In this document: positions 1 to 41,315 of the stretch, one piece after another
Position numbering within the stretch: the first letter of the stretch is position 1
How the letters are laid out: every line of letters begins with the position of its first letter
Assembly: GCA_021413965.1 (NCBI GenBank)
Contig: JAIOPI010000019.1
Span: 68,585-132,584 of the forward strand
Direction: 5' to 3'
DNA: 64,000 nucleotides
From: Lentisphaerota bacterium
GTDB lineage: Bacteria > Verrucomicrobiota > Kiritimatiellia > UBA8416 > JAIOPI01
Program-made: the position numbers and the translations under genes
The notes under the pieces: generated by a model
The model's database searches: none
The model's input: the letters and a program-made list of their open reading frames with translations, nothing else
What the model was told of the DNA's origin: nothing

Positions 1-3000
1 GCCAGGGTGTCGGCGTCCACGCGCAGCGACTGGACGGAGGTGCCGATACTCTGGCGCGCACGCAGGCCGACGTTGCGGGCCCGCAGGAGGCCGCTGAGCG
101 TGATGCTGCCGGCGGTGGCGTTGAGCACGAGCGTGTTGCCGGCCTGGACATTGCCCACGCCGCCGATGGATCGCGCGCTCATGACCACGTTGCCAGCGGT
201 CGCGCTGATCGAGCCGTTCAGGTTCAGCGTCCCGCCCGGTGCCGCTCCGTAGGCGGTCAGGAAGATTGTTCCGCTGTCGGAGCCGACGGTTGCCCCGGCG
301 TTCTGGCTGATGATCTGGCCGGAAATGTTCACATCGCCGTTGCCGCTGCGAACCGCCCCGCGCTTTTGGATGAAGTCTCCATCCGCCCACAGGGCGACGT
401 CCCCGGCTCCACCCGCGCGCACCGCCGACAAGGCGTTGTTCATCACGATGTCATCGGCCGAGTGCACCAGTACGCTGCCGGAGGTCGCGACGACCGGACC
501 CTGAAGGGTGATGGCGTCCGCGCTGCCGTTGGTAATCACGATATTGCCGCCGGCACTGGCAGCAAGGACCGTGAGTGCGTTGGCCTCGCCGATGTGGATG
601 TTGCCGTTGTTGGCCCGCGCCGAAACCGCGTCCACGTCCGTGTCGATCTCCGCGTTGACCGTTCCGGCGCCGATCGAGCCGCCCACGGCTTCGAGCAGCA
701 GCGAAGGCGTGACGATGCGGGTGGCGTTGTTCCCGTCGTCGAGGATGGAGCCGCCAGCGCTCAACTGAACCTGCTGGCCGGCGCTGAGGGTCTCGACCGT
801 GATGTTGCCGACGACCGTCGCGACTGAGGCGGTGCCTGCGACCGCGATGCCGGTCAGAAAGATCGTGTCGGCCTCGCCGATGTAGACGCTGCCGCCGGGG
901 GCATTGGCCTGCAGGGAGTAGGTCAGCGTGTCAATCTGCCCGGTCGGACCGGGGGCCCCGATGTTGCCCAGCAAGGCCGTCAGGATACCCGTGTCGGCCG
1001 TGATGCGCGTGCTGTTGTCATTGTCGTCCAGCAGTGAATTGGCCGCCGTCAGGGTCGCATCGCCGCCGGTGGAGTTTGTGCCGGCGGTGACCGTGCCGAC
1101 GATGATGTTGCCGGCGGAGTTGGTGATGACGATGTCGCCGCCCGCGGTGACGGTGCCGATGGTGAGGGCATTCTGCTCGCCGACGTGGAAGTCGCCGGCA
1201 TCCGCACGCCCGTTGAGGGTGCCAGCGGTCGTGTCGATTTGGGCGTTGGCGCCCGCCGCGCCCACGGCGTTGCCCGCGTTCAGGGTGACCGTTGCGGCGG
1301 TGATGCGGGTGGCATTGTTGCCGTCGTCGAGCAGGGAGTCGGCGGCACCCAGTGTTGCCGCCGTGCCCGCCGTCACGGTTTCCACCGTCATGACACCGGC
1401 CGAGTTGGTGACCACCACGGCCCCGGCGCTGATGACCGTCTTCAGCGTGATCCCGTTTTGCTCATTGATGAAGATACCGCCGGGGGCTGACGCGATCAGC
1501 GTGCTGGCATCCGTCTCGAGCTGCCCGCTGGCGCCGGTGGCGCCGATGCTGCCGCCGGCCGTCAGCGTCAGGAGATCGCCGCCCACGCGGGTCCCGTTGT
1601 CCAAATCGTCGAGCAGGGAGCCGGCCGCGACCAGGGTCGCGTCGCCGCCCGCGTTCACGGCCCCAGCCGTCATGTTGCCGGCGGAGTTGGTGATGACCAG
1701 GTCGTTGCCCGCCACTACCGTGCCGAGCGTGACGGCATCGGCCTCGCCGATGTGCACATTGCCGCTCGTGCCGTTCGCGTTGAGCGTGCCGGCTGTCGTA
1801 TCCATTTGCGCCGTCGCGCCAGTCGCCCCGATCGACCCGCCTGCGCCCAGTGTCACGGTCGTGCCGGTGATGCGGGTGGCATTGACGCTGTCATCCAGCA
1901 GATCGCCCGCGGCGACCAGGGTGGCGGTGCCCCCCGCCGTCACGGTGTTGACCGTCATGTCGCCGGTACTGTTGGTGACGACGATGTCGCCGGTGGCTGT
2001 GACATTGTTGAGGGTCACGCCGTCGCGCTCGCCAAGGAAAACCCCGCCGCTGGCCGCGGTCACATTCAGCGTCGTGGCGTCGGTTTCAAGCTGGCCGGTC
2101 GCACCGGTTGCGCCGATGGCACCAGCGGCGTTGAGAGTGAGCGTGCTGCCCGCGACGGTCGTGCTGTTGTCTCCGTCGTCCAGGATGGACCCGGCGGCGG
2201 TCAGGGTGACATCGCCGCCCGCGGTGACAACGCCGGCCGTCATGTTGCCGGCGGAGTTGGTGATCACGACGTTGCCACTGGCCGTGACGGTGTCGAGGGT
2301 GACGGCGTTGGATTCACCGACGTTCACGTCGCCAGCCGCGGCGGCCGCGTTGAGTGTGCCCGCGTCCGTATCCATCTGGCCGGTGGCCCCGGCGGCTCCA
2401 ACGGCACCGCCCGCCGCCAGGCTGACCGTGGCCCCCGTGATGCGCGTGCTGTTGTCGTTGTCGTCGATCAGGTTGCCAGCCGCCCCCAGCGTGGCGTCGC
2501 CACCCGCCGTCACCGTGGCGATCGTGAGGTCGCCGGCCGAGTTGGTGATCACAACGTCACCCGTGGCCGTCGCCAGCGTGACCGCAAGGGCATCCGCTTC
2601 GCCGACGTGCAGGTCGCCCGCCCCGGCCGTGGCGACGAGGGCGTCCACGTCCGTGTCGAGCTGTCCGGTCGCACCCGCGGCGCCGATCGCGCCTCCGGCG
2701 GTCAGGTTCACATTCGCGGCCGAGACGCCTGTGGTGTTATCGTCGTCGTCCAGAATGGATCCACCCGCCACGAGCGTCACATCAGCGCCGGACGTGACGG
2801 TGCCGAGCGCCACGCTGTCCGCTTCACCCACGAAGATGCTGTTCGCGCCACCGGACGTGGCGTTCAGTGTTTGGGCCGCCGTGTCGATCTGTGCCGTGGC
2901 GCCGGCCGCGCCGATGGCGCCGGCCGCGTTGAGGGTCACCGCGTTGCCGGTGACGCGCGTGCCATTCGCCCCGTCATCCACCAGGCTCCCGCCGCTGCCG

Positions 3001-9210: not shown

Positions 9211-11232
9211 CTAGAATTGGACTTGGGCGCTCAAGTGATAGCGTCCGGACTTCTCGACTGGGTCGTTTTCGCTGTCTTCAAACTCGCTCGGGAAGGACAG
9301 GGGCACGCCCCAGTCGAATTTCATCTGGGCGTAGCGTGTCATGCGCAGGCGCAGGCCCGCGCCGACGGAGAGGAGAGAGTAGCTGCTGTCGAGTCCCAGC
9401 GGATCCTTGATGCTGACATAGCCCGCATCGGAGAAGAGCACGAACTGGAGGTTGTCGCGCGCTTCACCCGCGGCCTCTCTGCTGTTCTGGCCCGCGGCGG
9501 AAGCGGCCTTGGCGCGGCGGCCGTAGCGCGCCGGGTTGAGCACGTCGGCGTACAGGGGGGTCCGCAATTCCAGCGAGCCCGACACGCCATCATCGCCGGC
9601 GGCGATACGCTCGGGAAAGCCGCGCACGGAGTCGCCGCCGCCGATCGACTTCTGTTCCGCGGGCACCAGCGGGCCACTGCCGATCTGGCCGTCGAGCTTG
9701 CCGAACAGCGTCCAATGCTTGGACGCATTCTTCTGGCTCGTGGTCGGGCTCATCAGCGGCTGCAGGCGGCCGATCTGCATGCGTTCGATAAAGTAGGTGG
9801 GGTCGGCATCCACGCGCAGGGCGGCAATTTCATCCTTGGTCGTCGGCAGGCCTTCGAAGTTACCCACGGACTGGCTGGTCAGGAAGTTGCGGCCGCCGAG
9901 GGCGTCGGGGCGACCCGAGGCGTAGGTGAGGGCAACGGAGAAGGGCAACAGGCGCACGCTGCGCGCGTCGGTCGCGAAATCCGGCTCGCTGCCGTTGCCC
10001 GCCAGGATCAGCTGGTCTTCAATATAGCGGTACACGCCTCCGAAGGCGGCCGTGACCTGGTGGCGGTCGTTGGCGACCAGCCGGTAGGATCCCTGCAGGC
10101 CGGTGAACCAGCCGTTACCCTTGATGTCGATCCCCTCGACCACGTCCTGCGCGTCCAGGTCGGAATAGCCGCCAAATGTCGTGAAGGCGCCGCCGTTTTT
10201 CCAGTCGTATGGCAGATAGTAGCTCGCCGCCACGGACTTCAGGTCCTTGAGGTTGGGCGAGACCGGGCCGAGGATCACGGACAGGACGTCGTCGTGCCGG
10301 GTCAGGTTCATGTGCTGCAACGTGATCGAGGGGCGCCAGTCGCCGGTGGCTTCCGTGCCGGAGCGGCTGATGCTGAACACCGTGTGCAGGGGCAGTTCCT
10401 CGTCGACGAAGTAATCCATGTCGGCGTAGCGGCGGGTGCGGCCGGCCTCGGCGTCGCGGCGCACATGCAGGTCGGTGTCCATCGTCAGGTCCGGATGGGC
10501 GTTGATGCCGTACATGCTGCGGTAGAAAGCCTCGTAATTGAAAGGCTCGCCTTCCTTGAGGCCGGATAGCTTGTAGCGCAACTGCTTCTCGCTGAAATAG
10601 CGCCCCTTGTACGGCACCTTGGGAGCTTCCGTGCCTTCGGGTGCCCCGGCCTTGGCGGGAACCTTCTTGTAGAAATTCATCTTGCCGTAGCGGCCGATGT
10701 CGACCTCGTAGATCACGGTGCCCCGGGTGTAGTCCGTCGGGGGCGTCCACACGCTGGCGAGGTAGTAGCCCTTCTCAACCAGCTTCTTCTTGTAGTTGCT
10801 GGCAATGGTCTGGATTTCGCGGGCCGTTAGAACGCGCCCCTCCACTTCCTTGCGCAACTCGTCGTACAGCCCGAGGGCCTTGAGTACATCCATGTCCCCG
10901 CGCACTTCGAGCTTCTGAATCTGGAATCCGTCCTTCTTGGGTGTACCGGCCTCCTCCTTGGGGGCCTCCACCGGCGTCGTGGCCTTCTCTTCCTGGGTTT
11001 CGGGCAGGCTGACGGCGGGCTGCTTCGGAACCTCGGGTGTCGTCTTCTGCTCCAGGATGTCGGCCTCCTGGGTCTTGAGTTCCTGGCCCATGCTGGCGCC
11101 GGGCAGCCGCGCGGCATTCGAAAGGCGGGCCTGCGCCCACGCCTGCCCGCTCCCGAGACCGCACCATGCGATCGCGACGATCAGCCATGCCTTGCGCCCA
11201 CTCAACTGCTTCGACTTCGCCGGCTGTGTCAT
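9211..11232 (-). CDS. TpsB-type two-partner secretion outer-membrane transporter (ShlB/FhaC family)
   Basis: The predicted 673-residue protein starts at the ATG at 11232, which has a strong GGAGGAG site 8 nt upstream and a clean Sec signal ending QAWAQA. A longer frame back to 11298 has no comparable site. After a Pro/Glu-rich linker (about 45-100) comes a POTRA-like region (about 100-200), beginning FQIQKLEVRGDMD and containing YKKKLVEKGYYLA. A C-terminal beta-barrel follows. The barrel carries the Omp85/TpsB hallmark GGGDSVRGFP (near residue 534) and ends with aromatic F in LSAQVQF. It should export the TpsA encoded 16 nt downstream. The lipoprotein gene ends 62 nt upstream, so the three genes probably form one transcript. 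Confidence 0.9.
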   Translation of the reverse strand: MTQPAKSKQLSGRKAWLIVAIAWCGLGSGQAWAQARLSNAARLPGASMGQELKTQEADILEQKTTPEVPKQPAVSLPETQEEKATTPVEAPKEEAGTPKKDGFQIQKLEVRGDMDVLKALGLYDELRKEVEGRVLTAREIQTIASNYKKKLVEKGYYLASVWTPPTDYTRGTVIYEVDIGRYGKMNFYKKVPAKAGAPEGTEAPKVPYKGRYFSEKQLRYKLSGLKEGEPFNYEAFYRSMYGINAHPDLTMDTDLHVRRDAEAGRTRRYADMDYFVDEELPLHTVFSISRSGTEATGDWRPSITLQHMNLTRHDDVLSVILGPVSPNLKDLKSVAASYYLPYDWKNGGAFTTFGGYSDLDAQDVVEGIDIKGNGWFTGLQGSYRLVANDRHQVTAAFGGVYRYIEDQLILAGNGSEPDFATDARSVRLLPFSVALTYASGRPDALGGRNFLTSQSVGNFEGLPTTKDEIAALRVDADPTYFIERMQIGRLQPLMSPTTSQKNASKHWTLFGKLDGQIGSGPLVPAEQKSIGGGDSVRGFPERIAAGDDGVSGSLELRTPLYADVLNPARYGRRAKAASAAGQNSREAAGEARDNLQFVLFSDAGYVSIKDPLGLDSSYSLLSVGAGLRLRMTRYAQMKFDWGVPLSFPSEFEDSENDPVEKSGRYHLSAQVQF

Positions 11233-11294
11233 GCAGACTCCTCCACTTCTTCTCGGCCGCACGGTCCTGCGCGCCTGATGTAATCTCCGCCCGT

Positions 11295-12635
11295 TCATGG
11301 CGTCGCGGCCTGCGCCGCCGGGGACGGCGGCACAGGCACCAGCTCATAAAGCGTGCGACTTTCCCGGTCGAACTGATAGTCCCGCTCCGGTACCATGGAG
11401 TACCGGTTGTTCAGGGCCAATTGCGTCCGCTCTTGCTCGAGTTGCTTCTCGCGCAGCAGTAGACGCAAGGCTTCCAGTTCCTGATTGATGACTTGTTTTG
11501 CGGCGAGAAGGCGCAGGAACTCGTGGGCTGTCGTCTCCTCGTCGAATTGACGGGAGACGCGACGTTCAAGTCCAGCCACGGGCGTGGAATCCTCGTCGGG
11601 ACCGGGGGTTGAACCCTGATGGGCGACTAGTTCATACAAGGTTTTGCTTTCGGTGTCGTACTGATATTTCTTGTCGGGTTCGACCGCGAAAGTCCCTTTT
11701 AGCCGTCCGTCCAAGACCAGCAGTTCGCGTTGCTTATCGCTGAGCAGTTGCGTCAGGACTCGCTGGGTTTCGTCCCCGGACTGCCGACGAGACGCCAGTG
11801 ACTCAAACTCCTGGGCAGCCTGATCTGAGGAAAATTGCAGGTGCGTTCGCCGTACGGCTCTTGCGCTGGCACCGGGGGACTCCATGGTATCCGGTGCATG
11901 GGGAGATGGTGGCTTCGACGTGGCGAAGGCGGGCGGATTGCGGTTTGCCTCGGCGATGGGTTGCGGCTGATCCGCTGCTGGTCTTTCAGCCAAAGTGCTC
12001 TTGGTGCTTGAGATGGTGTTGTACGGCTTGGCTCCTGCCGTTGACGGTGCGCTTGCGGGCAGAGGGCGACTTCCTCCCACGTTAGGCTGGCTGCTGGAGA
12101 CTGCGTTCTTAGCTGGTGCGGACGTGGGGTAGCTGGGTAGCGCCGCGGGGGCACCCGCGACTACCGTCGCAGGGATGCCGGCTGCGGTTGTGGCACCAGC
12201 CCCAGGCTGGGGGGTGCCGCCGCCGACCGTTGTTGAACGATTGGCGTTGAATGTCGTTCCCCTGCTGCTCGCAGGGGTCGAAAAGGACTGACTGTTTTGT
12301 GCGGCTGGCCGCACGGTAGTGGCATTGCGCTGATTAGTTTCAGATCCCCACAAGCGCCACCAAGACTTAGTGGACTTCCCGGTTGCGGCGTTACGGGTCG
12401 TTGATATCGCACTTGTGTCTGTGGAACGGACGCCAATCGCGGACGGCGTGTTCCGCGCGTCTCGCGTTAACGTGGGTCGGTTATCCTGACCTGAAGGACG
12501 CGTCACATAGGACGTGACGGGTTTCTGAGTTGGCATCCTGGCGTTGGAGGCCTTCCCAAAACCGCCCGGGTTGGCACATCCGACCAGCACACAGACAGAC
12601 GCGCACCGCAATCCCAACCTTAAAGCGCTCATCAT
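11295..12635 (-). CDS. Lipoprotein with a duplicated C-terminal domain, unknown function
   Basis: The N-terminus (LCASVCVLVGC region) has a lipobox ending at Cys20, so the protein is predicted to be lipid-anchored. Residues about 30-260 are low-complexity Ser/Thr/Ala/Pro-rich and probably disordered. The C-terminal third holds two copies of a domain of about 70 residues. Each copy has a Glu/Gln/Leu-rich helix (QEFESLASRRQ and HEFLRLLAAKQ) followed by a matching tail, YQYDTESKTLYELV and YQFDRESRTLYELV. No family is recognised. Its position directly ahead of tpsB suggests a role at the outer membrane for the TPS pair, which is an inference. The start is uncertain between two adjacent ATGs. Confidence 0.75.
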   Translation of the reverse strand: MMSALRLGLRCASVCVLVGCANPGGFGKASNARMPTQKPVTSYVTRPSGQDNRPTLTRDARNTPSAIGVRSTDTSAISTTRNAATGKSTKSWWRLWGSETNQRNATTVRPAAQNSQSFSTPASSRGTTFNANRSTTVGGGTPQPGAGATTAAGIPATVVAGAPAALPSYPTSAPAKNAVSSSQPNVGGSRPLPASAPSTAGAKPYNTISSTKSTLAERPAADQPQPIAEANRNPPAFATSKPPSPHAPDTMESPGASARAVRRTHLQFSSDQAAQEFESLASRRQSGDETQRVLTQLLSDKQRELLVLDGRLKGTFAVEPDKKYQYDTESKTLYELVAHQGSTPGPDEDSTPVAGLERRVSRQFDEETTAHEFLRLLAAKQVINQELEALRLLLREKQLEQERTQLALNNRYSMVPERDYQFDRESRTLYELVPVPPSPAAQAATP

Positions 12636-15299: not shown

Positions 15300-15321
15300 G
15301 GCAGACACACTCCAGGGACCT

Positions 15322-20458: not shown

Positions 20459-20495
20459 CGCGCGTTGACTCCTTGGTTGCCACTCAACACACACG

Positions 20496-29480: not shown

Positions 29481-30439
29481 TCCGCGCCCCAGCGGTCCGG
29501 GATCGGCGGGCGGGGCCGGACTTCCCCGGTCCGCACGAGCGACGCTTCGTATTCCGGCACGCCCCGTCGTCCGTTCCAGAGTTGGCCGCCAAATGGCAAG
29601 GCCGTGCCGTAGGTGCGCAGGTTTTCGAACACGGTCGGAAGCGCTTCCTGCCAATTGAAGAAGAACGCCTTCGAGGGCAACACAAGGTGACCGCACATGT
29701 AGGTCTGATCCGACGTTCCCTGTTCGTGTACCGTGGCCGTCACATTGGGGCCGGATGCCGTGCCTGTGCGGCGTACGCGTCCGTTGGCCGTCCGCACCGT
29801 GTAATAGTACCGGTAGCGGAAACTGGTATCCTTGCCCCGCACTCGAGCCAGCAGCGTCAAGACGCCGTGGCCGCAGGGAAACGCCTCCAGGCGCGCGGCG
29901 CTTTCATTTCGGCGCGCGATCGCGATGGCGGTCTGGATGCATTCGCGGCCGTAGCGGGAGTTGGCCGAGGATTGCGCCTCCAGCAGTTCGTCGTTGGTTC
30001 GCCGGAAGGTCCGGGCTTCGCGCTCCGCGGCGGAATTGCCGGATGACTTGCTGGAATACGGGCCGTTGCGCCAGACCTTGTTGCGATAAACATCAAGCAG
30101 TTCGATGATCTGATTGTTGATTCGAGCAATTTCGTTCATGCCCCGTGCCTGCACGACGGCGCCGGAAAAAGCTGCGCAATCCACGGTGGTCTGGAGGTGC
30201 ACATGGGTGGTCAGGAGTTCCGCGACGTTGAGCGTGCAGAACAGCACCAGGGCGCCCATGTACATCAGGAAGCAGTTGAGAATCGTGATCTGACCGCTAC
30301 GGGCATTCGGGCGGGGCCGCTGACCCTCCCCGGACGGAAAGGGAGGGACGCCGGCCCCGGCGTCCGTAGGCCACCCCGCCCCCATCAGGCCATCCCCGGT
30401 CGCGGGGTCATGGCACACACGGTTCGTTTCTCCTCGCAT
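29474..30439 (-). CDS. TadG-like envelope protein
   Basis: The predicted protein has 321 residues from the ATG at 30439; sequence upstream of this is antisense-like and overlaps the previous gene. A hydrophobic helix (SGQITILNCFLMYMGALVLF, about 50-70) resembles the TadG/TadE-family N-terminal anchor. It is followed by VHLQTTVDCAAFSGAVVQAR, typical of 'Flp pilus assembly TadE/G-like' proteins, and about 230 periplasmic residues. Residues about 16-45, before the anchor, are encoded by a multi-stem palindromic element (30309-30381), suggesting an in-frame insertion. The ribosome site is weak (AGGG), so the start is uncertain; a later ATG at the GAGWPTD segment is possible. Confidence 0.7.
   Translation of the reverse strand: MRGETNRVCHDPATGDGLMGAGWPTDAGAGVPPFPSGEGQRPRPNARSGQITILNCFLMYMGALVLFCTLNVAELLTTHVHLQTTVDCAAFSGAVVQARGMNEIARINNQIIELLDVYRNKVWRNGPYSSKSSGNSAAEREARTFRRTNDELLEAQSSANSRYGRECIQTAIAIARRNESAARLEAFPCGHGVLTLLARVRGKDTSFRYRYYYTVRTANGRVRRTGTASGPNVTATVHEQGTSDQTYMCGHLVLPSKAFFFNWQEALPTVFENLRTYGTALPFGGQLWNGRRGVPEYEASLVRTGEVRPRPPIPDRWGAEW
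30309..30381. repeat. Multi-stem palindromic element inside the TadG-like gene
   Basis: Outer arms GGGCGGGG (30309-30316) and CCCCGCCC (30374-30381) enclose two hairpins. One is CCCTCCC/GGGAGGG (30324-30330 and 30341-30347). The other is GGACGCCGG/CCGGCGTCC (30346-30354 and 30357-30365). The element is in frame and encodes a Gly/Pro-rich peptide (AGAGVPPFPSGEGQRPRP) ahead of the membrane anchor. Confidence 0.65.
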
Positions 30440-30495: not shown

Positions 30496-30963
30496 TCACC
30501 GCAGGCTGGACCCCGCGGCTTGTTCCGCCGTCTGAAGGTCGCGGAATTCCACCGTTTCGAGCACGGGCGATGCCCCCTCCGTTTTGCCGGTGGGCATCCG
30601 GATGTTGTAAACGTCCCGAATGCTGACGGTCATCACCTTGGGGCGGGACTCCGCGGTGTGCTGCGAAACCTCGCCATGCCCCCGCATGCTGGCGCCGGCA
30701 TAGTGCCGCGCAATGTAGCTCGAATCCACCCCGCCCACGGCCCACCGGCGCGCGGCCGTAAAGGCCGCATGCGAATTGCAGATCTGCCGCAGCATCATCT
30801 CCTGAAAAACCAGCATCAGCAATGCGCACAAGGCCATCAGTGGTAGCAGTCCGACGAACTCGACCAGCAAGTAGCCTTCGCGATCTCTGCGACGCCGAAG
30901 GTTGCGTTCCGGTTTCTCGCGGAGTGGTCGCATCAGAATCGAGCTCTCAGCTGGTTGTTGCAT
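30496..30963 (-). CDS. TadE-like pseudopilin (first copy)
   Basis: The predicted protein has about 155 residues from the ATG at 30963; a GTG at 30972 and an ATG at 30933 are alternatives. A highly basic N-terminus (NLRRRRDREGYLLVEFVGLL) leads into the TadE-type hydrophobic helix with its characteristic Glu, then LCALLMLVFQEMMLRQI. The C-terminal part is a small soluble domain (RPKVMTVSIRDVYNIRMPTG). It follows the Flp pilin gene and precedes the TadG-like gene, as pseudopilin genes do in tad operons. Confidence 0.75.
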   Translation of the reverse strand: MQQPAESSILMRPLREKPERNLRRRRDREGYLLVEFVGLLPLMALCALLMLVFQEMMLRQICNSHAAFTAARRWAVGGVDSSYIARHYAGASMRGHGEVSQHTAESRPKVMTVSIRDVYNIRMPTGKTEGASPVLETVEFRDLQTAEQAAGSSLR

Positions 30964-31051
30964 GTTCCGCACACTAGGATCAGTCGATGAAAGGCGAGAG
31001 CGACGGGGCTCCCGGCGTCGGAGCCCAGTCGAATCTTCGGCGTTTTGTTGG

Positions 31052-31291
31052 TCACTTCAGCCCTAGCAATTCCATGAACTTGTCGAGCGCCCCTTGCATG
31101 ATCGCCTTCACCCCGTCATTGACTGTCGCGGCGGTTCCGAGTATTGCGCCCAACACCACCAGCGTGATGGCGATCATGGACACCAAGTTCACCTCTCCCC
31201 GCTTCTCGGTGACTACCCGGTGAACTTCCTCGGAAACCCACACAGCGATCCGCAGGCCCACTTGCTGCATCTTGTTTACCAACGTCTTCAT
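31052..31291 (-). CDS. Flp-type major pilin candidate
   Basis: The predicted protein has 79 residues, the usual size for Flp pilins. A charged leader-like half (residues 1-33) ends KRGEVNLVSMIAITLVVLG, running into one hydrophobic helix that carries a Glu near its start. A short amphipathic tail follows (ALDKFMELLGLK). The Gly-Glu step in KRGE is the likely prepilin cleavage region. It lacks the usual EYGLIA core, so the match rests on size, topology and position at the head of the tad genes. GAGGAG lies 9 nt before the ATG. A sigma54 promoter lies about 75 bp upstream, making this the first gene of the transcript. Confidence 0.72.
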   Translation of the reverse strand: MKTLVNKMQQVGLRIAVWVSEEVHRVVTEKRGEVNLVSMIAITLVVLGAILGTAATVNDGVKAIMQGALDKFMELLGLK

Positions 31292-31366: not shown

Positions 31367-31381
31367 GCAAAAGGCGTGCCA
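31367..31381 (-). promoter_or_regulatory. Sigma54 (-24/-12) promoter of the flp/tad genes
   Basis: On the minus strand the sequence is TGGCACGCCTTTTGC, a perfect match to the sigma54 consensus TGGCACG-N4-TTGC with correct GG-to-GC spacing. Transcription should start near 31355, about 64 nt before the pilin ATG at 31291. The divergent-risk reading on the plus strand is meaningless. The adjacent gene encodes a sigma54-dependent activator, which strongly supports the assignment. Confidence 0.88.
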
Positions 31382-31835: not shown

Positions 31836-33662
31836 TTAAAACTCGGCTGGATTCCGCAGTTTCTCGTAGAGCGTGGTGCGGCTGATCCCAAGGCGTTCGG
31901 CGGCTAACTTCTTGTTGCCCGCGCACTCCTGCAGGACGCGCCGAATATGGTGGTGTTCCACCCCTCTCAAGTCACCGGCGGGCGATTCCAAGACTTCCGC
32001 CGCCGGTTCGCACGGCGCGCAAGCCATGATGATCTCCGGCGGCAGGTCGTCCAGTTTCAGTTCTGGGCCTGACGTCAGGACGAGACACCGCTCCACGACG
32101 TTGCGCACTTCGCGCACGTTTCCCGGCCAGGGGTAGGTGCACAACGCCTGCATGGCCTCCGGCGACACTCTCCGAACGTCCGTCGCAACACTGCGCCGCA
32201 AATCGCCGACGAAGAAATCCACTAGGTCGGGAATATCCTCGGTGCGCGCGCGCAATGCCGGGAGTCGGACTTCGATCACCTTCAGCCGGAAATAGAGATC
32301 CTCACGAAAGGCACCCTCCTTGACCGCAGCCTCCAAGTCGCGATTGGTGGCCGCAATGACTCGCACATCCACCTTAATCTGTTTATTGCCGCCGACCCGC
32401 ATGAATTCCTGCTCCTGCAGCACGCGCAACAGCTTCACTTGCATGACTAGGGACAACTCGCCGATCTCGTCGAGGAAAATGGTTCCGCCATCGGCATCCT
32501 CGAATAGCCCGCGGCGGGCGGTCACCGCGCCCGTAAACGCCCCCTTTTCGTGCCCGAAGAGGGTGCTGCCCAGCAAGTTTTCCTCGATGGCACTACTGTG
32601 CACGGGAATAAACGGGCCGTCCCGACGCGGGCTTTCGCCGACAATGAGGCGCGCAAAGAGTTCTTTCCCGGTACCGGACTCGCCGCGCAGCAGAATCGTG
32701 GCGTCCGTGCGGGCCGCGCGCATGGTGGTCGCCATGCAGGCCTGCAAGGCCTTGCTGCGCCCGATAATCTCCGCGGATGGGGCCGCCGGAATAGCGGTCG
32801 CCCTGGCGCTGGACGTGGCGTGCAGAGCCAGTCCCATACCGAGCGCTTCCGCGGCCAGGCGCACGACATCCATCGGCTCAGGATCGAGGGGCTCCGTGCC
32901 TTCGACATAAAGCGCCCCCCGTGGGCGGCCCGCCATCAGCACGGCGTGGCAAGCTGCATCGTCGGCTTCTGCCGCGCCAGCGCCACGGTCGCGGACCGGC
33001 GTGTCACCGGCGGCCACGGCGCGCAGCAGGTCTTCCGAGAAGGGCGTGCCGGAACGGCTGCGGGGGTCGCCGCGCTTGATCCAGCGCTCCGTATGGCCGC
33101 AAACGCCCGGGGCAAGGTAGAGCACCACCCGCCTCACATTGCAGAGCCCCGCCAGATCGGACACGACCTGTTCCGCCACGGCCCCGGTCTGGTGCGCATG
33201 CGCGGCATTGAACGCGCGCATAATCTGCCAACCGTGCAGCGTCGGGTCGCTGCCGCGTTTTCGACGCTCGGATGCCGGCTGACAGATGGTGGCGCCATCC
33301 GGTATAATCCCGTCCGCGGCACTCCTCGCCGGGAGGGAATCGATGGCGGGCTGTTCGGGGGCGGCCAGTTCGTCTGCCAAGTTGAACACCAGTTCGACGT
33401 TGCCAATAGCAATGCGGTCGCCGTCGCGCAGCAGCCGCCGGCATATCGCAATGCCATTGACACGGGTCCCGTTGCGGCTGTTGTGATCGACCAGTACGTA
33501 GCCCTCAGGTCGGGATTCAATCGAAGCATGCTCGCGCGAAAGGTTGCGGTCGTTCAGGCAAAGTTCGCAAGCCTGTGCGCGTCCGATGCGGATGCGCCTG
33601 GCGTCGAGACGCAAGGGGCTGACTCCCGCCTGGTCGAGGCGCATGAGAAGGCCGATCGACAT
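31836..33662 (-). CDS. FHA-domain sigma54-dependent transcriptional activator
   Basis: The predicted protein has 608 residues from the ATG at 33662 (GGGAG 5-6 nt upstream), preferred to an ATG 51 nt earlier. The N-terminus is an FHA domain (about 12-95; RIGRAQACELCL, LSREHASIE, SRNGTRVNG). A GAF-like region follows (about 125-295). The AAA+ sigma54-interaction domain (about 310-545) has Walker A GESGTGKE, the GAFTGA loop required for sigma54 contact, Walker B GGTIFLDEIGEL and arginine-finger region FREDLYFRL. A Fis-type helix-turn-helix (GNKKLAAERLGISRTTLYEK) closes it. There is no receiver domain, so control is probably through phosphothreonine binding by the FHA domain. The likely target is the sigma54 promoter of the pilin gene directly downstream. 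Confidence 0.93.
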   Translation of the reverse strand: MSIGLLMRLDQAGVSPLRLDARRIRIGRAQACELCLNDRNLSREHASIESRPEGYVLVDHNSRNGTRVNGIAICRRLLRDGDRIAIGNVELVFNLADELAAPEQPAIDSLPARSAADGIIPDGATICQPASERRKRGSDPTLHGWQIMRAFNAAHAHQTGAVAEQVVSDLAGLCNVRRVVLYLAPGVCGHTERWIKRGDPRSRSGTPFSEDLLRAVAAGDTPVRDRGAGAAEADDAACHAVLMAGRPRGALYVEGTEPLDPEPMDVVRLAAEALGMGLALHATSSARATAIPAAPSAEIIGRSKALQACMATTMRAARTDATILLRGESGTGKELFARLIVGESPRRDGPFIPVHSSAIEENLLGSTLFGHEKGAFTGAVTARRGLFEDADGGTIFLDEIGELSLVMQVKLLRVLQEQEFMRVGGNKQIKVDVRVIAATNRDLEAAVKEGAFREDLYFRLKVIEVRLPALRARTEDIPDLVDFFVGDLRRSVATDVRRVSPEAMQALCTYPWPGNVREVRNVVERCLVLTSGPELKLDDLPPEIIMACAPCEPAAEVLESPAGDLRGVEHHHIRRVLQECAGNKKLAAERLGISRTTLYEKLRNPAEF

Positions 33663-33840
33663 GTTGCTCCCATTTGCCGCGATGCGGCACCAACCTGGGC
33701 TAACGCCCTCCATCGATGGGCCATCATTTCCAGAAGGCCGGAAACAGAATCATCAGCGAGGGGGCAGCCCTAAATGCACCACCTGAACAAGAAATACACG
33801 CCCGATGCGGATCATCAAGCCCAAAACGAAGAAACGCGAG

Positions 33841-36800
33841 TCACTTAAATCCGGCTGAGAGAGCAAGCAGGATTTTGCGATCGTCGCTGTATTCGGTGCC
33901 CATCTCTAGTTGTGTCTGTAGACCGCTACGCACTAACGTCTCACGTAGTGCCGTTCGCTCAAACCCTGGTAGGATGCACAGGGCCAGACTCGCGTCGCGG
34001 AAGGGCCTGCTCAAGTCGCTTCGGCCGCTGCTCGCGCTTGCTGTCCTGACTTCAACGGCAACAAGACTGGCCGTTGTCTGCACGGCCCCGTCGGGTGCGG
34101 CATCCACAATGCGCTTTAGATCCGAGAGTACTCTGAGGGTCAGGTCTCTATGTGCCCTTATGGAATGTTCCCATGCCCACACAGGGTCCAAGGGTTGTAT
34201 GCGGCCATCTTTGGTGGGCGGTTTGTTCTTCTGTTCTTTCACCCCCAAAATGTTGTTTCCTAGGCAGAGTCCCGCCTGATAAATGGCCAATTGAAGGTCG
34301 TAATTATTCGGCTGGCCTCCCCTCTGGACCCACTGCGCAAGATTGTCCAGCACTTCGAACGTAGGTTCGCCCGGCCGAAAAGTCCTGTGCGCGCGCCACC
34401 GAAAGGATTCTGGCATACGTGTGTCGGCGGGTGGCGGGGCCGTCGCCCCATCCCACGCGAGCAATTGCCTGTCGAATTCCAGTTCCGTGCGCATGGAGAG
34501 TTCGTTTTGGGCGAGCTGTGCGAGTTTCTGGGTCAGTTCTCGCCTTCCGGGCAGATCTCCGACTGCATATTTAGTCCAAACGGCCGCCCGCCGCCAACGC
34601 GCGGCGGTGGCCGCGTCGAGTCGGGCAATTGCCCGGTCAGGCCAGGGCGGCATGCGGGATAAGTTCAGATTAGGTGCCCTGCCGGGCGGGGCGCAAAGCT
34701 CACCGCTCGACGGATCCATGACCTGATAAAGCGCGGCCCTGTACCCGGCAATAGCGGCCTCGATGGGTAGCAATGCCTTGGTGACTTCGTCCGTGGCCTT
34801 GCTCACCCACAGTGCCTCCAGTCGCCGGTAGCGCTCCTCGTGAGCTTGCCATTCGAATTTCGGCTGGCGTTCGTCGGGAATCCAGCGTGTCAAAAGACCC
34901 GGATTCGGGGACGTCAAGGCAGCTTGAAGCCTGTCAAGCGCGTCCAGTTGCGGACTTGGCGTCCACACCGGCGGAAACTCAAGCGTCGGACTGGTCCCGC
35001 CCACCTTCAGCACGATATTGCTGTCGACGTTGTCATAGTCGGGGCGCGACAGACGCAGTTCATAACGGCCCGGAGGCAGTGCCAACTCGGGCGCCCAAGG
35101 GCGAAAGTCCCCTTGTCCGGCCAAGCGGTAGGCGATTGACACCGGGGGATCAAGCGCTCGTACGGTTTCGCCGCCGATTGCAATGGTCAGCCGTTTTGGC
35201 GCCAAGGACCCAAGGCCGATTTCGCATCCGCCGCCCGGCGAGAGGGTGAATTCCTGTTCTTTCGTCTCATAACCGTACCGACTTGCCAAAACGCGTCCCG
35301 CACCGGGCTTCTGGACGGGAACTGAAACAACAATGCGACTTCCCGCAGCGAGTCTGCGCTCATACCCCAACCCGGAAATGTTGACCGTTAGTTCGTTCGC
35401 GTCCTCATTATGCAAGGCCAAACGGCAGACCCCCAACTGGTCATTCACGCCTGCAATCATCCCACTCATCGCCTCCGCGCCCAGCAAAGCGGAAACGGCT
35501 GGCTCCCTCAGCAAATCGTTGACGCCCTTGAGTCGCTTCCCGCGCTCGAGCAGCGGTTCGTCCTGCCCGACAATCCGACCGATGGCATTGGTGAGGGCGG
35601 CCGCGACCAGCGCCTGAAACGACGCGCGATTCGCGCGCTCCGAAATGCGCGCCAGCGCCTTTTCTGCGGTGGTAACCTCGGACAGCAGTTGGGGTGGATT
35701 CAACCCTCCAGCAGCCACCCTGTCGAGAACCTGAGCCAAATCCCGGCGGGCGGACAAGGCGCTGGCGTTCAGGCGTTGTTTGGCCTCATCACTCGCCTGT
35801 TTGGCAAGAGCTCGCGAGGACTGTACACAGGACCTCAGGGACGGCGGGAGGAGGCGGAGGACCGGATCCAGCCCATCCAGTGCTTCCTGGAAGTCATCAC
35901 AGGGCTGAAAATTCGAAGCCTCCAGGGATTCCGCTCGTGCGCAAGCGCTAGTGACAATTCCGATGTCGTGTGTCAGCGTACGTTTCACCGTGTTTGCGAG
36001 TTCGGTCTGAAATCGTTGCTCTCGCTCGGCGGTCCATGCCAGGCTGGCCAATTGCGCATTTCGTTCAAACCATTTGACCAGCGCTTGAGTTGTTTGGACC
36101 GGCTGCAATTCGTCCATAAGTCGTCTCAACACTTGTTCCTGGAAGGTGCTGTCAACTTGCGAACGAATGCCGTCGAGTAGCGTGGCGGCGGCTGGCCCGG
36201 CCAGTCGGTGCAGGACGGGCACGCTGTTCGTGAGCGCCAGTGTGGAACTGTCGATCTTACTTAGATTCAGGAAGGCCACGTAGTTTGAGGATAATTCGGC
36301 GATCTTGGCGGCCACGGTGCGGGTGGCTTCGGTACGAATACCTGGGGGCCAAGACTGCTGTTGTAGCTCGGAGAGGTCTACCACGCAGGCCTCTGCCTGC
36401 TCCAGGGTGGCCTCGGTAATGCGTGTCGGCAGGTTCTTCGTCGCCGCCAAGTACGCCTGCCGAAACGCAACCCAGTCCGTCTGTTGCTTGGCGAACGTTT
36501 CAATCGTGGCGTACCGCACGGGTTCCAGCCAGTCCGATGGCACCGTCCGCCAAAGCGCCACCAGTTGCGCGACATTCGTGACCCCGCCTTTCGCCGCCGC
36601 CACGGCCATGGCATTGGTCATGTCGCCGAGTAGCGCTGCGGTCCGGGACTCCATCGTTTGGATCTGGCGTTCGAGGGCCGCATCTCCGGGGTGCTGCGCC
36701 AGTTGTTCACCAAAATAGTGGCGGTACTGGACCAATTGACTCACGTAATCGGGCGAAAGCTGGGGCGATTTCAATGCAAATGTTTCTGTGGCTCGGGCGC

Positions 36801-38811
36801 GTTGAAGCGTCCAACGGCCATAAGACCAGTTCACGATGCCCACCAAGGCGCATGCGACGAGCAGCCATGGCACGACTTTCGGCGCCCAACGCGAAACAAG
36901 GGTAAGTAGAGGATTCGAAGGATCAGGGGGTGGGACGACAACGGTTACACCATCGGCCTTCGTTTTCCCCGGAACACTTTGCGTTACGGTGCCGACGTCG
37001 GTATGTTGGGCCACCATCAAACCGGAGAGCGCGGCCAGCATGTCGCTTGCCGACTTGTATCGCCGACGGGGATCGACATGGGTCGCCTTCAGCAGAACTT
37101 GAAGCAGTCCTGGCCACGCCCGAAAGATGACATCGTCGGTATTGACGACGACAGCAGGCGCGGGGTTAAGCCAGGCGGCCTTGGGCGAGACGCGGGGAGA
37201 AGGCGATGGCGGAGCGGTGGGCCTCTGACCGCCCAAAGCCTCGTACATGCTGACGCCAAGCGCATATATATCCGATTGAACCGTCCCCCGAACCTTCTCG
37301 GACGCGAGCAATTCCGGGGCCATGTACTCCGGCGTCCCCGGAACGGGGCCAATCTTCGTCACGATCGTGTCGCGCTCTTCGCGCACGATCCCCAGATCAA
37401 AAATCTTGGGCTCAGAACTCGCCCCAAGTGGCGGGGCATAGAGATTGGCAGGCTTAATGTCCCGATGAATCATGTTTTGGCCGTGAAGATGGTCCAAACC
37501 GCGCAGATAGCAAATGAACAGGCGAATCACCTCGTCCACGGGCAGGCCGTGCGGCTTGGCGGCCCGGATGCGCCGGTTCAGGATGTCCTCCGGTGCCCCT
37601 TCCAGAAATTCAAGAACTAGATAAAGCTCCTCCAGCCCTGGCACATCGGAATGCGCGATGAAGTCGAGGTACCGGATGACGTGCGGGTGTCCGCCTGCAT
37701 CGGATATTTCCCGCAGGCGCTTGGCCTCCCGGATGAATCGCGCGGGATCGCGCTGTGCGGTCAGGTGTTTGACGGCAACCAAGGCGCCATCGCGGCCTCG
37801 GATCGCCTTGTAGACCTCGCCAAAGCCTCCTGCGGCAATCCACTCGACAAGTTGATACGACTCCGGCCCCTGGCGGAGGGTGAAGTAGTCGATTTGGAGA
37901 TACTCGGCCAGGGCCTCCGCGAACGATTGGAATCGCTTTTCCGGGTCGACGTCGAGGCACTTCCGGATGAATGCACGCAGGCGCGGGAGCACATTGAAAA
38001 CGCGCTCGGGAAACTTCAGTTCGGGCAATTCACGCCCACCTGCCCAGCGTCGGATATGCTGCGAAATTGTTTTGATGGATGGAGGAAAGGGCAGCCGGCC
38101 ACAGAGCGCGACGTACAGGCACGCGCCAAAGCTGAAGATGTCGCTACGCTCGTCGCCGTGCCAGTTTTCGTCATCGCGCTCCTCCGCAAACTCGGGGGCC
38201 ATGAAGTCCGGCGTCCCCTTGATGCCGCCCGGGGTGCGATCGGCCGTGGTTTCATCGTCAAGACGAGCAATGCCGAAGTCGATGAGGCGGGCCGACCCAT
38301 CCTTCAGGATGAGGATATTCGATGGTTTGATATCCAGGTGGTGGACGTGCCGGCTTCTGGCGTGACACAAACCTTCCAGGCACTGGCGAAAGATCTCGCG
38401 TCCCTGGGCCCATGGAATCTCGGTTCCGTTTTGCCCCGCTTCATCGCACGCGATAACGTCGCGCAGGGACCGGTTTTCCACGAAGTCCATGACGATACAA
38501 GGATGCCGTGGAAGTTCCGACGCAAAGTCCTCCAGATACCGGACAATCGCCGGATGCGATAGCCTTTGGAGAATCTTGATGTGACGATGAAAGCGATGTT
38601 CGTTCTCGGCGCCGTCCAGCGTGGCGTAGAGCAGCTTGAGCGCAACAATGGCGCCGTGGGGAATGGATGGCGTTCCACTGTCTTCGCGAACGGCCTCATA
38701 GACGATTCCTTCGCCACCCTTGCCAATAATCCTGACAATGCGATAGGGCCCCAGGCGTTCGGAGCCGCGGGCAGCGGAAGCATCGGCCGAGTCTTGTCGT
38801 TCCAGTTCCAT
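33841..38811 (-). CDS. Double Ser/Thr protein kinase with large extracytoplasmic part
   Basis: The predicted protein has 1,656 residues from the ATG at 38811. Kinase domain 1 (about 20-285) has the loop IGKGGEG, catalytic HLDIKPSN and DFG in LIDFGIAR. Kinase domain 2 (about 320-610) has AAGGFGEVYKA, VAVKHL, HRDIKPAN and a DLG in place of DFG (KIFDLGIVRE), then GTPEYMAPEL. A membrane helix (about 645-665; VVPWLLVACALVGIVNW) separates these from about 990 residues that are largely helical, with a beta-rich PEGA-like segment (for example LPPGRYELRLSRPDYDN). The phosphatase gene lies 68 nt upstream and the FHA-type activator downstream, so the locus encodes writer, eraser and readers of phosphothreonine. 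Confidence 0.9.
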   Translation of the reverse strand: MELERQDSADASAARGSERLGPYRIVRIIGKGGEGIVYEAVREDSGTPSIPHGAIVALKLLYATLDGAENEHRFHRHIKILQRLSHPAIVRYLEDFASELPRHPCIVMDFVENRSLRDVIACDEAGQNGTEIPWAQGREIFRQCLEGLCHARSRHVHHLDIKPSNILILKDGSARLIDFGIARLDDETTADRTPGGIKGTPDFMAPEFAEERDDENWHGDERSDIFSFGACLYVALCGRLPFPPSIKTISQHIRRWAGGRELPELKFPERVFNVLPRLRAFIRKCLDVDPEKRFQSFAEALAEYLQIDYFTLRQGPESYQLVEWIAAGGFGEVYKAIRGRDGALVAVKHLTAQRDPARFIREAKRLREISDAGGHPHVIRYLDFIAHSDVPGLEELYLVLEFLEGAPEDILNRRIRAAKPHGLPVDEVIRLFICYLRGLDHLHGQNMIHRDIKPANLYAPPLGASSEPKIFDLGIVREERDTIVTKIGPVPGTPEYMAPELLASEKVRGTVQSDIYALGVSMYEALGGQRPTAPPSPSPRVSPKAAWLNPAPAVVVNTDDVIFRAWPGLLQVLLKATHVDPRRRYKSASDMLAALSGLMVAQHTDVGTVTQSVPGKTKADGVTVVVPPPDPSNPLLTLVSRWAPKVVPWLLVACALVGIVNWSYGRWTLQRARATETFALKSPQLSPDYVSQLVQYRHYFGEQLAQHPGDAALERQIQTMESRTAALLGDMTNAMAVAAAKGGVTNVAQLVALWRTVPSDWLEPVRYATIETFAKQQTDWVAFRQAYLAATKNLPTRITEATLEQAEACVVDLSELQQQSWPPGIRTEATRTVAAKIAELSSNYVAFLNLSKIDSSTLALTNSVPVLHRLAGPAAATLLDGIRSQVDSTFQEQVLRRLMDELQPVQTTQALVKWFERNAQLASLAWTAEREQRFQTELANTVKRTLTHDIGIVTSACARAESLEASNFQPCDDFQEALDGLDPVLRLLPPSLRSCVQSSRALAKQASDEAKQRLNASALSARRDLAQVLDRVAAGGLNPPQLLSEVTTAEKALARISERANRASFQALVAAALTNAIGRIVGQDEPLLERGKRLKGVNDLLREPAVSALLGAEAMSGMIAGVNDQLGVCRLALHNEDANELTVNISGLGYERRLAAGSRIVVSVPVQKPGAGRVLASRYGYETKEQEFTLSPGGGCEIGLGSLAPKRLTIAIGGETVRALDPPVSIAYRLAGQGDFRPWAPELALPPGRYELRLSRPDYDNVDSNIVLKVGGTSPTLEFPPVWTPSPQLDALDRLQAALTSPNPGLLTRWIPDERQPKFEWQAHEERYRRLEALWVSKATDEVTKALLPIEAAIAGYRAALYQVMDPSSGELCAPPGRAPNLNLSRMPPWPDRAIARLDAATAARWRRAAVWTKYAVGDLPGRRELTQKLAQLAQNELSMRTELEFDRQLLAWDGATAPPPADTRMPESFRWRAHRTFRPGEPTFEVLDNLAQWVQRGGQPNNYDLQLAIYQAGLCLGNNILGVKEQKNKPPTKDGRIQPLDPVWAWEHSIRAHRDLTLRVLSDLKRIVDAAPDGAVQTTASLVAVEVRTASASSGRSDLSRPFRDASLALCILPGFERTALRETLVRSGLQTQLEMGTEYSDDRKILLALSAGFK

Positions 38812-38879
38812 TTCCAAAGCCAGGCGTTCAACAGGCCGGACAACCGTCGCGTCAGAGGAAGGCGACGCGGACGATGGCG

Positions 38880-41315
38880 TTATCGTGTCTGACGGGGCTG
38901 TTTCTCAGAGGCTTCTGTATTTGCGCTGTCGACGGTTTTGTTGACGTACTGGATGAGTTCACGCAGCGCGTCCAACAAATCCGGGGGCATGGGCTGGCCA
39001 GTCTGGCGTCCCGCCGTCAGCAGACGAATGCGTTGCTGCATGCGGGCTACTTCGTTCAGGTCGACCGGCGGCACCGGAGCCACTTTTCGGTTTAACTCCG
39101 CTAACGCACGCGGTAAAGCCGTGGCGACGGCACGGCTCAAAGCTGCTTCGGCCAGGACCGGCACACCCGCATCCAGGGAGTCGAGATCATCGCGTGGCGG
39201 ATAGTGAGCAAGAATCCACGGACCAACCGCAGACCGCGCCATGACGACCCAGTCATCAACACGGCCGGCGACCCGGCTTACCGTGGCTGCGCTGCGAGAC
39301 ACTGCCGGCCAGTCTACCGACAACAGGCATCCGCCAACGCACATTAGGTTCGACAGGGATGCAAACGGATTCGGTCCTATAGCCGAAAGCATCGGCGCGT
39401 GCACTGCCTGCCGATTCGAAACAAGGGCCAGCACCGACGCTTGCGTTTCCTGAAGGAGTCGACAAACGTTTCCGGGAGCACGCTCGGGCTCTGCGTCGAA
39501 TGCCGATAGACTGTCGAGAATCGACGACGATGAAGGGGGGAGCAGATTAATGAGCACGTTTGAAACCAGCACCATACACTCGGACATCTTTGACGGGGTA
39601 GACGCCAATTCTCTCCAAAAGCAAATCCAGGCGTCCGCGTTGGCCGTCTGATGCGAATCAAGCAGCGAGGCGTCGGCGAGACGATTGGTGGGCAGCCACG
39701 AGGCCGTATCACCCCAACCGCCGGAGGCCAACGCCGCGGTGTACCGATTTCTTGCATCTGCGCGTAGCTCCGATTCGTCCGCCGAACGGGTTTCGGTTTT
39801 CGAAGCCGGTTCCATTATGGCCTCCATGGTCGAGGATGGCATGACCTGATCAGCGACCTCGCTCACAGGGGAACTGGCAGGAGCCGAATCCTCAGGCTCA
39901 ACGTGACCCGAAGCAAGGAAGGTGGCGTCTCGGTCGGAAAATTCTTCGATTGGAGGCCGTGTGCGAGAATCAACCTCGGGCCTGGGCGCCTCGTCAGCAA
40001 CGGTGGCCTGAACCGATATCACTGACGGGCTCAGCACTTCCTGTGAGCCCGTTGGTTCTTCAGCCGTTTCTCCACCGGAGGCGTTCACCGCATCGGATTC
40101 CGACTTTGGGTAGATTGAAACAACGGGGCCAGAATAGGCGGGAACGGAGATGATGACTTCTTCATGCGAAGGCTTCACGGGAGTGGCCGATTGGCCGCCG
40201 TCTGTCTCCGTGAAAGGCGCTTCCACGTCTTTCGCAAGAGCATGAGGATGAGGGGCCTCGATCTGTTCCCCGGTGGTGGCCACAGACGCTTCCTGTTCAA
40301 GCACAGATAAAGTGGGGCCCGCATCCCGTCGCTGAACAACAAGTGCGATACTCAGGGCCACCGCGATGGATACGACCATGGCGAAGGTTGTCTTCATCCC
40401 TCGTTGCGGCCGCCTCGCTCCCGTGGTCGGCGAGGGATTGATGCATGAGTTATCGTCGGAATTGCGCGTGTCGGGAGTCTTCCCTTTTGCGTCTCGGTCC
40501 GGAGGCGGTGGCTGCGCTTCCGGTGTCGGGGGGCCGTCGAGCACGGCGTCAGTTACGGGCGTGGCGGCGTCCAGTGTTGCGCCAGCATGACCGATGGCCA
40601 GCAGAAGAACAGTAGTATTGTCGAAGCCCCCCTTGCGGTTGGCTTCATCGACTAGCACCTGCGCCATTCTCGTAACGTCCGGCCCTTCTCTTCGCATGAC
40701 CTGCGCGATCTGATCATCGTTCAGCATCGTGGTCAGGCCATCGGTGCAGAGCAGCAGCAAATCGTTTTCCCGGATATCGATTCTCTTCTGTTCCAATCCT
40801 AGGTCGTCGCCTACGCCGACGGCCCGGGTTAGGGCATGCCGGTACCGCTTCGCGACCCTATAATGAGGGCCGAGTTCACCCTGAATGGAGTGATCCGTGG
40901 TGAGTTGCGCGAGTTGGCCCTGCCGAAGGCGATAACAGCGGCTGTCCCCGGCGTGCAATATCCGGGCTTCGGCGGGGGTCCGTTCGTCGAGCAGTGCCGC
41001 GACGACGGTACTACCCATTGACGCAAAATCCCGTTCTTCTGCAAATCGTTTGATCCAACTATGTGCTTCTGCCACGGCAGCGTTTGTGTCCAGCGCCTTT
41101 TCGTCCAGCGTCCGCCGTGCCGGTTCCGAAGTTTTGAACCTGCTGCGAATGGCATCGACAACGGCCTTGCTCGCCTGATCGCCCGCCTGCCCGCCGCCCA
41201 TGCCGTCCGCGACGCAAAAGACCCCGTAGTCACACAGTTGAAGCGCAGAATCCTCGTTCGCCCGGCGCTTGAGTCCCATATGGGATTGGATGGTGCAAGT
41301 TAGCCATTGTCGCAT
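38880..41315 (-). CDS. PP2C-type protein phosphatase with membrane helix and C-terminal extension
   Basis: The predicted protein has 811 residues; the ATG has GAGGG 8 nt upstream. An N-terminal PPM domain (about 1-240) carries the metal-binding motifs RANEDSAL, VADGMGGGQAGDQAS, LLCTDGLTTML and GGFDNTTVLLL. A Pro-rich linker, one membrane helix (about 310-330; FAMVVSIAVALSIALVV), an acidic low-complexity stretch and an Ala-rich helical C-terminal region follow, the last two without recognised family. Bacterial PPMs of this layout oppose Hanks-type kinases, and the double kinase gene follows 68 nt downstream. Confidence 0.9.
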   Translation of the reverse strand: MRQWLTCTIQSHMGLKRRANEDSALQLCDYGVFCVADGMGGGQAGDQASKAVVDAIRSRFKTSEPARRTLDEKALDTNAAVAEAHSWIKRFAEERDFASMGSTVVAALLDERTPAEARILHAGDSRCYRLRQGQLAQLTTDHSIQGELGPHYRVAKRYRHALTRAVGVGDDLGLEQKRIDIRENDLLLLCTDGLTTMLNDDQIAQVMRREGPDVTRMAQVLVDEANRKGGFDNTTVLLLAIGHAGATLDAATPVTDAVLDGPPTPEAQPPPPDRDAKGKTPDTRNSDDNSCINPSPTTGARRPQRGMKTTFAMVVSIAVALSIALVVQRRDAGPTLSVLEQEASVATTGEQIEAPHPHALAKDVEAPFTETDGGQSATPVKPSHEEVIISVPAYSGPVVSIYPKSESDAVNASGGETAEEPTGSQEVLSPSVISVQATVADEAPRPEVDSRTRPPIEEFSDRDATFLASGHVEPEDSAPASSPVSEVADQVMPSSTMEAIMEPASKTETRSADESELRADARNRYTAALASGGWGDTASWLPTNRLADASLLDSHQTANADAWICFWRELASTPSKMSECMVLVSNVLINLLPPSSSSILDSLSAFDAEPERAPGNVCRLLQETQASVLALVSNRQAVHAPMLSAIGPNPFASLSNLMCVGGCLLSVDWPAVSRSAATVSRVAGRVDDWVVMARSAVGPWILAHYPPRDDLDSLDAGVPVLAEAALSRAVATALPRALAELNRKVAPVPPVDLNEVARMQQRIRLLTAGRQTGQPMPPDLLDALRELIQYVNKTVDSANTEASEKQPRQTR

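What the first reader, a model, noticed from the sequence alone, without database searches (positions are those of the whole stretch)
1..41315. A 41-kb colinear locus joining phospho-signalling, a Tad pilus, an Rhs protein and a two-partner secretion exoprotein
Every gene from the phosphatase to the giant exoprotein is on one strand in one block. It includes writer (double Ser/Thr kinase), eraser (PP2C) and three readers (FHA activator, FHA and double-FHA membrane proteins) of phosphothreonine. It also has a Tad pilus apparatus split around an Rhs/TPR/secreted-repeat trio, followed by TpsB-TpsA. Each component is a known family; I do not know of a described system that combines them under one regulator. 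The inferred role is a controlled surface-attachment and contact system in which pilus assembly, Rhs protein and filamentous adhesin are deployed together. This is the best candidate in the window for an undescribed system.
Basis: partly seen in the sequence, partly recalled or inferred. Interest (0 to 1): 0.85.

Follow-up and report, generated by a model that had tools for sequence, protein, structure and literature searches.

The report
Phosphothreonine-wired Tad pilus and exoprotein locus
In an uncultured PVC-group bacterium, genes for a Tad-type pilus, a giant secreted protein and a threonine-phosphorylation switch sit together, and distant relatives keep the same parts together in another order, which suggests one contact or attachment machine under one switch; the Rhs gene in the middle is a private addition of this strain.

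Summary
The exoprotein runs past the window edge (3485 aa), and a second PP2C-tandem kinase pair starts 172 bp after it, followed further on by a paralogous FHA-rich Tad locus. The exact 41-kb arrangement is not conserved: in the two genomes with the orthologous Tad set (of 346 in the class) there is no Rhs, no TPS after the FHA gene, and activator and kinase lie elsewhere. TPR and the secreted repeat protein do belong to the Tad core. The combination, however, recurs. G242 carries one 39-kb run: FHA-sigma54 activator, Tad, FHA proteins, three tandem kinases, PP2C, TpsB-TpsA, CpaF. G206, G228, G253, G264, G298 and G049 carry subsets. The only perfect sigma54 site in the window is 90 nt before flp, and five of five activator-bearing genomes that could be checked have a strong site at that place; Tad loci without the activator have none. 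Best reading: a phosphothreonine-controlled, sigma54-driven Tad machine, often carrying a TPS exoprotein, closest to the Kil system of Myxococcus. Rhs was probably recruited.

The parts
38880..41315 (-). PP2C phosphatase with long C-terminal extension (eraser)
   Evidence: Pfam PP2C_2 1e-13; homologue next to kinase in G115, G049, G242, G206, G264
33841..38817 (-). membrane tandem Ser/Thr kinase, 1658 aa (writer)
   Evidence: Pfam Pkinase, two stretches; one transmembrane stretch near residue 645 and both catalytic motif sets by eye; N and C kinase domains fall into two clades shared by all loci
31836..33713 (-). FHA-sigma54 activator with Fis HTH
   Evidence: Pfam; orthologues only in G115, G049, G206, G098, G242 of 346 genomes
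31367..31381 (-). sigma54 -24/-12 site TGGCACGCCTTTTGC, 90 nt before flp ATG
   Evidence: only perfect match in the window, both strands; equivalents in relatives
31052..31291 (-). Flp-type pilin
   Evidence: no Pfam hit; similar pilins at the same place in G049 and G115
30496..30972 (-). TadE-like pseudopilin (start uncertain)
   Evidence: homologues in G049 and G115
29474..30439 (-). TadG-like protein (start uncertain)
   Evidence: codon scoring; homologues in G049 and G115
29106..29480 (-). second TadE-like protein
   Evidence: homologue in G115
28234..29076 (-). CpaB/RcpC
   Evidence: Pfam RcpC 7e-18
26713..28164 (-). CpaC secretin
   Evidence: Pfam Secretin 4e-33
25031..26584 (-). CpaF/TadA ATPase without FHA domain
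   Evidence: Pfam T2SSE 3e-63
24608..24622 (-). possible second sigma54 site TGGCCCGAAAGTTGC, 92 nt before Rhs ATG
   Evidence: one mismatch, score 14.5, background 0.036 per kb and strand: suggestive only
20496..24530 (-). secreted Rhs protein, 1344 aa; strain-specific insertion in the Tad operon
   Evidence: Pfam RHS_repeat, DUF6531; absent from G049, G115, G206
19106..20512 (-). TPR protein at the TadD position (start probably about 20458)
   Evidence: conserved between cpaF and sec584 in G049 and G115
17355..19109 (-). sec584: secreted beta-repeat protein, no Pfam family
   Evidence: no Pfam hit; conserved before tadB in G049 and G115 and before PP2C in G264
16233..17060 (-). TadB
   Evidence: Pfam T2SSF
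15322..16212 (-). TadC
   Evidence: Pfam T2SSF
14520..15308 (-). FHA membrane protein
   Evidence: Pfam FHA 1e-14; conserved after tadC in G049 and G115
12827..14566 (-). 2xFHA membrane protein
   Evidence: Pfam FHA, two stretches
11295..12635 (-). lipoprotein-like orf446, TPS-associated
   Evidence: homologue precedes tpsB in G042, G027, G094, G048, G123, G038, G041
9211..11298 (-). TpsB transporter
   Evidence: Pfam ShlB and POTRA_2
1..9194 (-). TpsA exoprotein, 3485 aa, ends at C24:67321 outside the window
   Evidence: Pfam TPS 4e-29; full frame

Best explanation
The locus is a composite surface and contact machine wired by threonine phosphorylation. The membrane tandem kinase (periplasmic part about 1000 aa, presumably the sensor) phosphorylates threonines; PP2C reverses this. 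FHA domains then act at two levels. In the FHA-sigma54 activator, phosphothreonine binding would license open-complex formation at the sigma54 promoter before flp (and cpaB in relatives), switching on the Tad operon. In the FHA membrane proteins next to TadC (and FHA-CpaF in cluster B), it would control assembly of the machine after translation. TpsB-TpsA supply a secreted filamentous exoprotein that belongs to the same module in several families. Here Rhs entered the operon between cpaF and the TadD-like gene, possibly under its own sigma54 site. Shown: gene content, recurrent linkage, conserved sigma54-like sites. Inferred: sensing, phosphorylation, FHA readout, joint deployment, contact function.
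For: G242:C2 holds the same parts on one strand over 39 kb: activator 4239, CpaB, CpaC, FHA-CpaF, TadB, TadC, FHA, 2xFHA, pilins, TadG/E, kinase 22.8k, PP2C, kinase, TpsB 31.6k, TpsA, kinase 38.4k, CpaF2 to 43.7k. G206: activator-Tad-2xFHA-PP2C-kinase-CpaF2; G228 and G253: Tad-FHA and CpaF2-TpsB-TpsA; G264: TPR-sec584-PP2C-kinase-CpaF2-TpsB; G298: TpsB-TpsA-kinase; G049: TpsB-PP2C-kinase; G115: PP2C-kinase-activator. Tandem kinases of this family are rare, 0-3 per genome, yet lie within about 20 kb of TpsB in five genomes. Sigma54 score >=15 occurs 0.0114 times per kb and strand, but stands 31-105 nt before flp or cpaB in G000, G242, G206, G049 and G115, and 51 nt before the TPR-sec584-PP2C run of G264; none in five Tad loci without the activator. 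rpoN found in G000, G049, G115, G242, G098.
Against: In G049 and G115 the orthologous Tad set is not next to activator, kinase or TPS. TpsB of the orf446 type stands alone in G042, G041, G027 and G094. G228 and G253 carry Tad and TPS without an activator in the sequence read, and their kinases are on other contigs. rpoN was not found in the incomplete G206. Most linked cases are from one family (f42), so independent lineages are about three. No good sigma54 site precedes orf446/tpsB or the PP2C gene in the window. FHA function is inferred from domain family only.
Confidence: 0.6

Rival explanations
1. Kil-like contact weapon: the Tad apparatus is assembled at the contact site with other cells and serves killing or predation; FHA and kinase relay contact; TpsA and Rhs are the effector side.
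For: The Myxococcus Kil system is a Tad-like machine with FHA-fused ATPase and many FHA proteins, assembled on prey contact (PMC8460266). Cluster B has the FHA-CpaF fusion. Rhs and TPS proteins can be contact toxins (own knowledge).
Against: Window CpaF lacks the FHA domain; TadG-like and TadD-like genes are present although Kil lacks them; no toxin domain or immunity gene found for Rhs; nothing is known of predation by this organism.
Confidence: 0.25
2. Plain attachment island: independent adhesion systems (Tad, TPS, Rhs) stacked in one genomic region without shared control.
For: Tad A set is present in only 3 of 346 genomes and is unlinked from activator and TPS in two of them; TPS with orf446 stands alone in several genomes.
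Against: The same combination recurs in f42 and partly f35, with rare tandem kinases beside TpsB and sigma54 sites at matching places.
Confidence: 0.25
3. The TPS pair belongs functionally with the downstream PP2C-kinase of cluster B (outside the window), not with Tad A.
For: tpsA ends 172 bp before the cluster-B PP2C on the same strand; G049 has TpsB-PP2C-kinase, and its TpsB groups with the window's (90/89).
Against: G049 TpsB sits on a long branch, so its place is unsure; orf446-tpsB-tpsA also follows the Tad A genes with a 192-bp gap and no obvious promoter.
Confidence: 0.3

Closest known systems
Kil system of Myxococcus xanthus (Tad-like, PMC8460266)
   Same: Tad-type secretin, ATPase, platform and pilins with several FHA proteins; a signalling role of the FHA domains is proposed there; FHA fused to CpaF in cluster B
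   Different: Here kinase, PP2C and FHA-sigma54 activator are encoded in the locus, TPS and (in this strain) Rhs are included, TadG-like and TadD-like genes are kept, and the window CpaF has no FHA
Tad (tight adherence) pilus loci; CpaF class III with FHA (PMC12019362)
   Same: Flp, CpaB, CpaC, CpaF, TadB, TadC, TadE/G-like, TPR
   Different: No CpaA or TadZ recognised in the window cluster (a CpaA-like gene lies near cluster B); added FHA membrane proteins, sec584, kinase and phosphatase
Two-partner secretion
   Same: TpsB with POTRA and ShlB barrel; TpsA with TPS domain
   Different: Placed in a phospho-signalling and Tad context, with orf446 upstream
Kinase/phosphatase/FHA control of secretion machines: T6SS (cited as a parallel in PMC8460266) and T7SS variants, two of them beside Tad loci (PMC11217815)
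   Same: Threonine phosphorylation enzymes and FHA proteins encoded with a secretion machine; RHS substrates in T7SS
   Different: Other secretion machines; no FHA-sigma54 activator described in the passages read

Membership tests
Tad pilus | CpaF ATPase, TadB, TadC, secretin, CpaB in one locus | tested here: met
   Pfam
Tad pilus | Flp prepilin with cleavage motif | tested here: inconclusive
   79-aa Flp-like protein, no Pfam hit; Glu+5 present in the G115 pilin but not evident in the window pilin
Tad pilus | prepilin peptidase CpaA and TadZ/CpaE in the locus | tested here: not met
   not found within the window cluster; CpaA-like gene near cluster B at C24:30539-31048 (sequence); TadZ not searched genome-wide
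Kil system | FHA fused to CpaF | tested here: not met
   window CpaF lacks FHA; met in cluster B
Kil system | absence of TadG and TadD | tested here: not met
   TadG-like and TPR genes present
Kil system | contact-dependent killing | not testable with these tools
   needs experiment
Two-partner secretion | TpsB barrel with POTRA and TpsA TPS domain | tested here: met
Rhs polymorphic toxin | Rhs core | tested here: met
   11 RHS repeat stretches, DUF6531
Rhs polymorphic toxin | C-terminal toxin domain with immunity gene | tested here: not met
   no Pfam toxin domain in the C-terminal 300 aa; next gene is the conserved TPR gene
sigma54 regulon | -24/-12 promoter at target genes and rpoN in genome | tested here: met
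   transcription itself not tested

The most novel reading that the evidence does not exclude
A conserved supersystem of one PVC class: a kinase-phosphatase-FHA relay read by an FHA-sigma54 activator fires a Tad machine together with a TPS exoprotein, as one contact-triggered device, and lineages plug in further cargo such as Rhs.
Probability: 0.35. Interest if true: 0.8.

Novelty: new variant of a known kind. Interest (0 to 1): 0.62.

Why it matters
In Kil, FHA domains are conspicuous but no kinase is mentioned in the paper (0 occurrences). These loci encode writer, eraser, transcriptional reader and machine readers next to the pilus, so the open question of how phosphothreonine signals drive Tad assembly becomes directly testable. 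They also suggest that Tad pili and TPS exoproteins can be one functional unit.

Tried and rejected
Rhs/TPR/secreted-repeat as one inserted trio: rejected, TPR and sec584 are conserved there without Rhs. TPS as an unrelated neighbour: my first view after G049/G115, withdrawn. Viral origin: no relative of CpaC in viral contigs. AlphaFold of sec584: pLDDT 41 with three sequences, not usable, so no fold search. Sigma70 promoter and terminator scans: at the chance level. Genome-wide scan with the CpaC alignment found only G049 and G115 by name. Activator beyond the class: none in a sample of the phylum. Literature: no paper found that combines Tad, TPS and FHA control; the library is incomplete.

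Full report
WHAT IS THERE. The window is C24:68585-132584 of a 5.43-Mb genome in 42 contigs. The two relatives that could be named are metagenome assemblies, one labelled PVC group bacterium. Pfam confirms every named protein class on the minus strand from 41315 down to the window start. Pilin-level genes have no Pfam hit and rest on orthologues. The exoprotein continues to C24:67321, 3485 aa.

A SECOND CLUSTER. 172 bp beyond tpsA, on the same strand, lies another PP2C (65088-67148) and another tandem kinase (58485-65054). A stretch of Mla, DnaJ and other genes follows, then flp, cpaB, cpaC, FHA-cpaF, tadB, tadC, FHA and 2xFHA (44.4-34.8 kb). This cluster-B type of Tad locus recurs in the class, often with PP2C and the tandem kinase beside it: G071, G048, G043. 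So a Tad-FHA-kinase-phosphatase association is general in the class. The window cluster A is a rarer type, found in 3 of 346 genomes.

In G049 and G115 the type-A Tad order is tadE-tadG-cpaB-cpaC-cpaF-TPR-sec584-tadB-tadC-FHA. cpaF is followed directly by TPR, without Rhs. No TPS follows. The activator sits on another contig in both; in G115 it is preceded by PP2C and kinase, and in G049 PP2C and kinase stand behind TpsB. Rhs has no homologue in G049, G115 or G206. The block as such is therefore not a conserved unit, and Rhs is an addition.

THE COMBINATION RECURS. TpsB is found in 23 of 334 genomes. In family f42 and in G049 it sits beside kinase, PP2C or the second CpaF. G242 has the whole set on one strand over 39 kb, including a Pfam-confirmed TPS domain protein and the FHA-sigma54 activator. 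Among about 17 TpsB loci with enough flank, nine are linked to these genes (my count); the tandem kinases number only 0-3 per genome, so chance linkage to a kinase would be around one per cent per locus (rough estimate). Most linked cases are of one family, so about three independent lineages stand behind this. The TpsB tree puts the window's TpsB with G049 and G027, apart from the f42 clade, with moderate support and a long G049 branch. The kinase tree splits all N from all C domains of the tandem kinases, so the tandem kinase is one old family.

SIGMA54. The only perfect TGGCAC-N5-TTGC in 64 kb is at 31367-31381, 90 nt before flp. The looser two-mismatch pattern is not enriched in the window (75 found, 84 expected), so the argument rests on position and conservation. 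Sites of score 15 or more, background 0.0114 per kb and strand, lie 31-105 nt before flp or cpaB in all five genomes that carry the activator and whose Tad start could be read; they are absent from five Tad loci without it. The weights of this score were set by me from the known consensus, and the sites were looked for in chosen regions first and over whole stretches afterwards. The site before Rhs (one mismatch) is suggestive only.

MECHANISM. The stated model (kinase writes, PP2C erases, FHA activator turns on the Tad operon, FHA membrane proteins gate the machine, TpsA and here Rhs are cargo) follows from family knowledge and the comparative pattern. None of its biochemical steps was tested. 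Kil of Myxococcus is the nearest described machine (PMC8460266), but two of its distinguishing features are not met by cluster A.

Noticed in passing
C24:34846-67148 of G000 (outside the window): Second, paralogous Tad-FHA locus with its own PP2C and 2189-aa tandem kinase directly beyond the window; a third Tad-FHA set on contig C17 (12.4-18.2 kb).
   Followed up: partly
31052-31291: The window pilin seems to lack the Glu+5 typical of Flp pilins, which its G115 counterpart keeps.
   Followed up: no
17355-19109: sec584, a secreted beta-repeat protein without Pfam family, conserved beside TPR in Tad-A loci and in G264.
   Followed up: partly
42364-53840: Lipid-type cluster: chalcone isomerase-like, sigma70-family factor, CMAS twice, amine oxidase, DUF1295, DUF1365.
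   Followed up: no
42506-42598: ARAGORN tRNA-Pro(cgg) antisense to the chalcone isomerase-like gene; possibly a false call. tRNA-Pro(tgg) at 41626-41702 borders the block.
   Followed up: no
L111/L118 (G298:C9 40.7-47.3 kb): ORFs starting like TIR-domain proteins directly after the TpsB-TpsA-kinase genes.
   Followed up: no
14235-14249: Sigma54-like site (score 15.7) inside the 2xFHA gene; meaning unclear.
   Followed up: no
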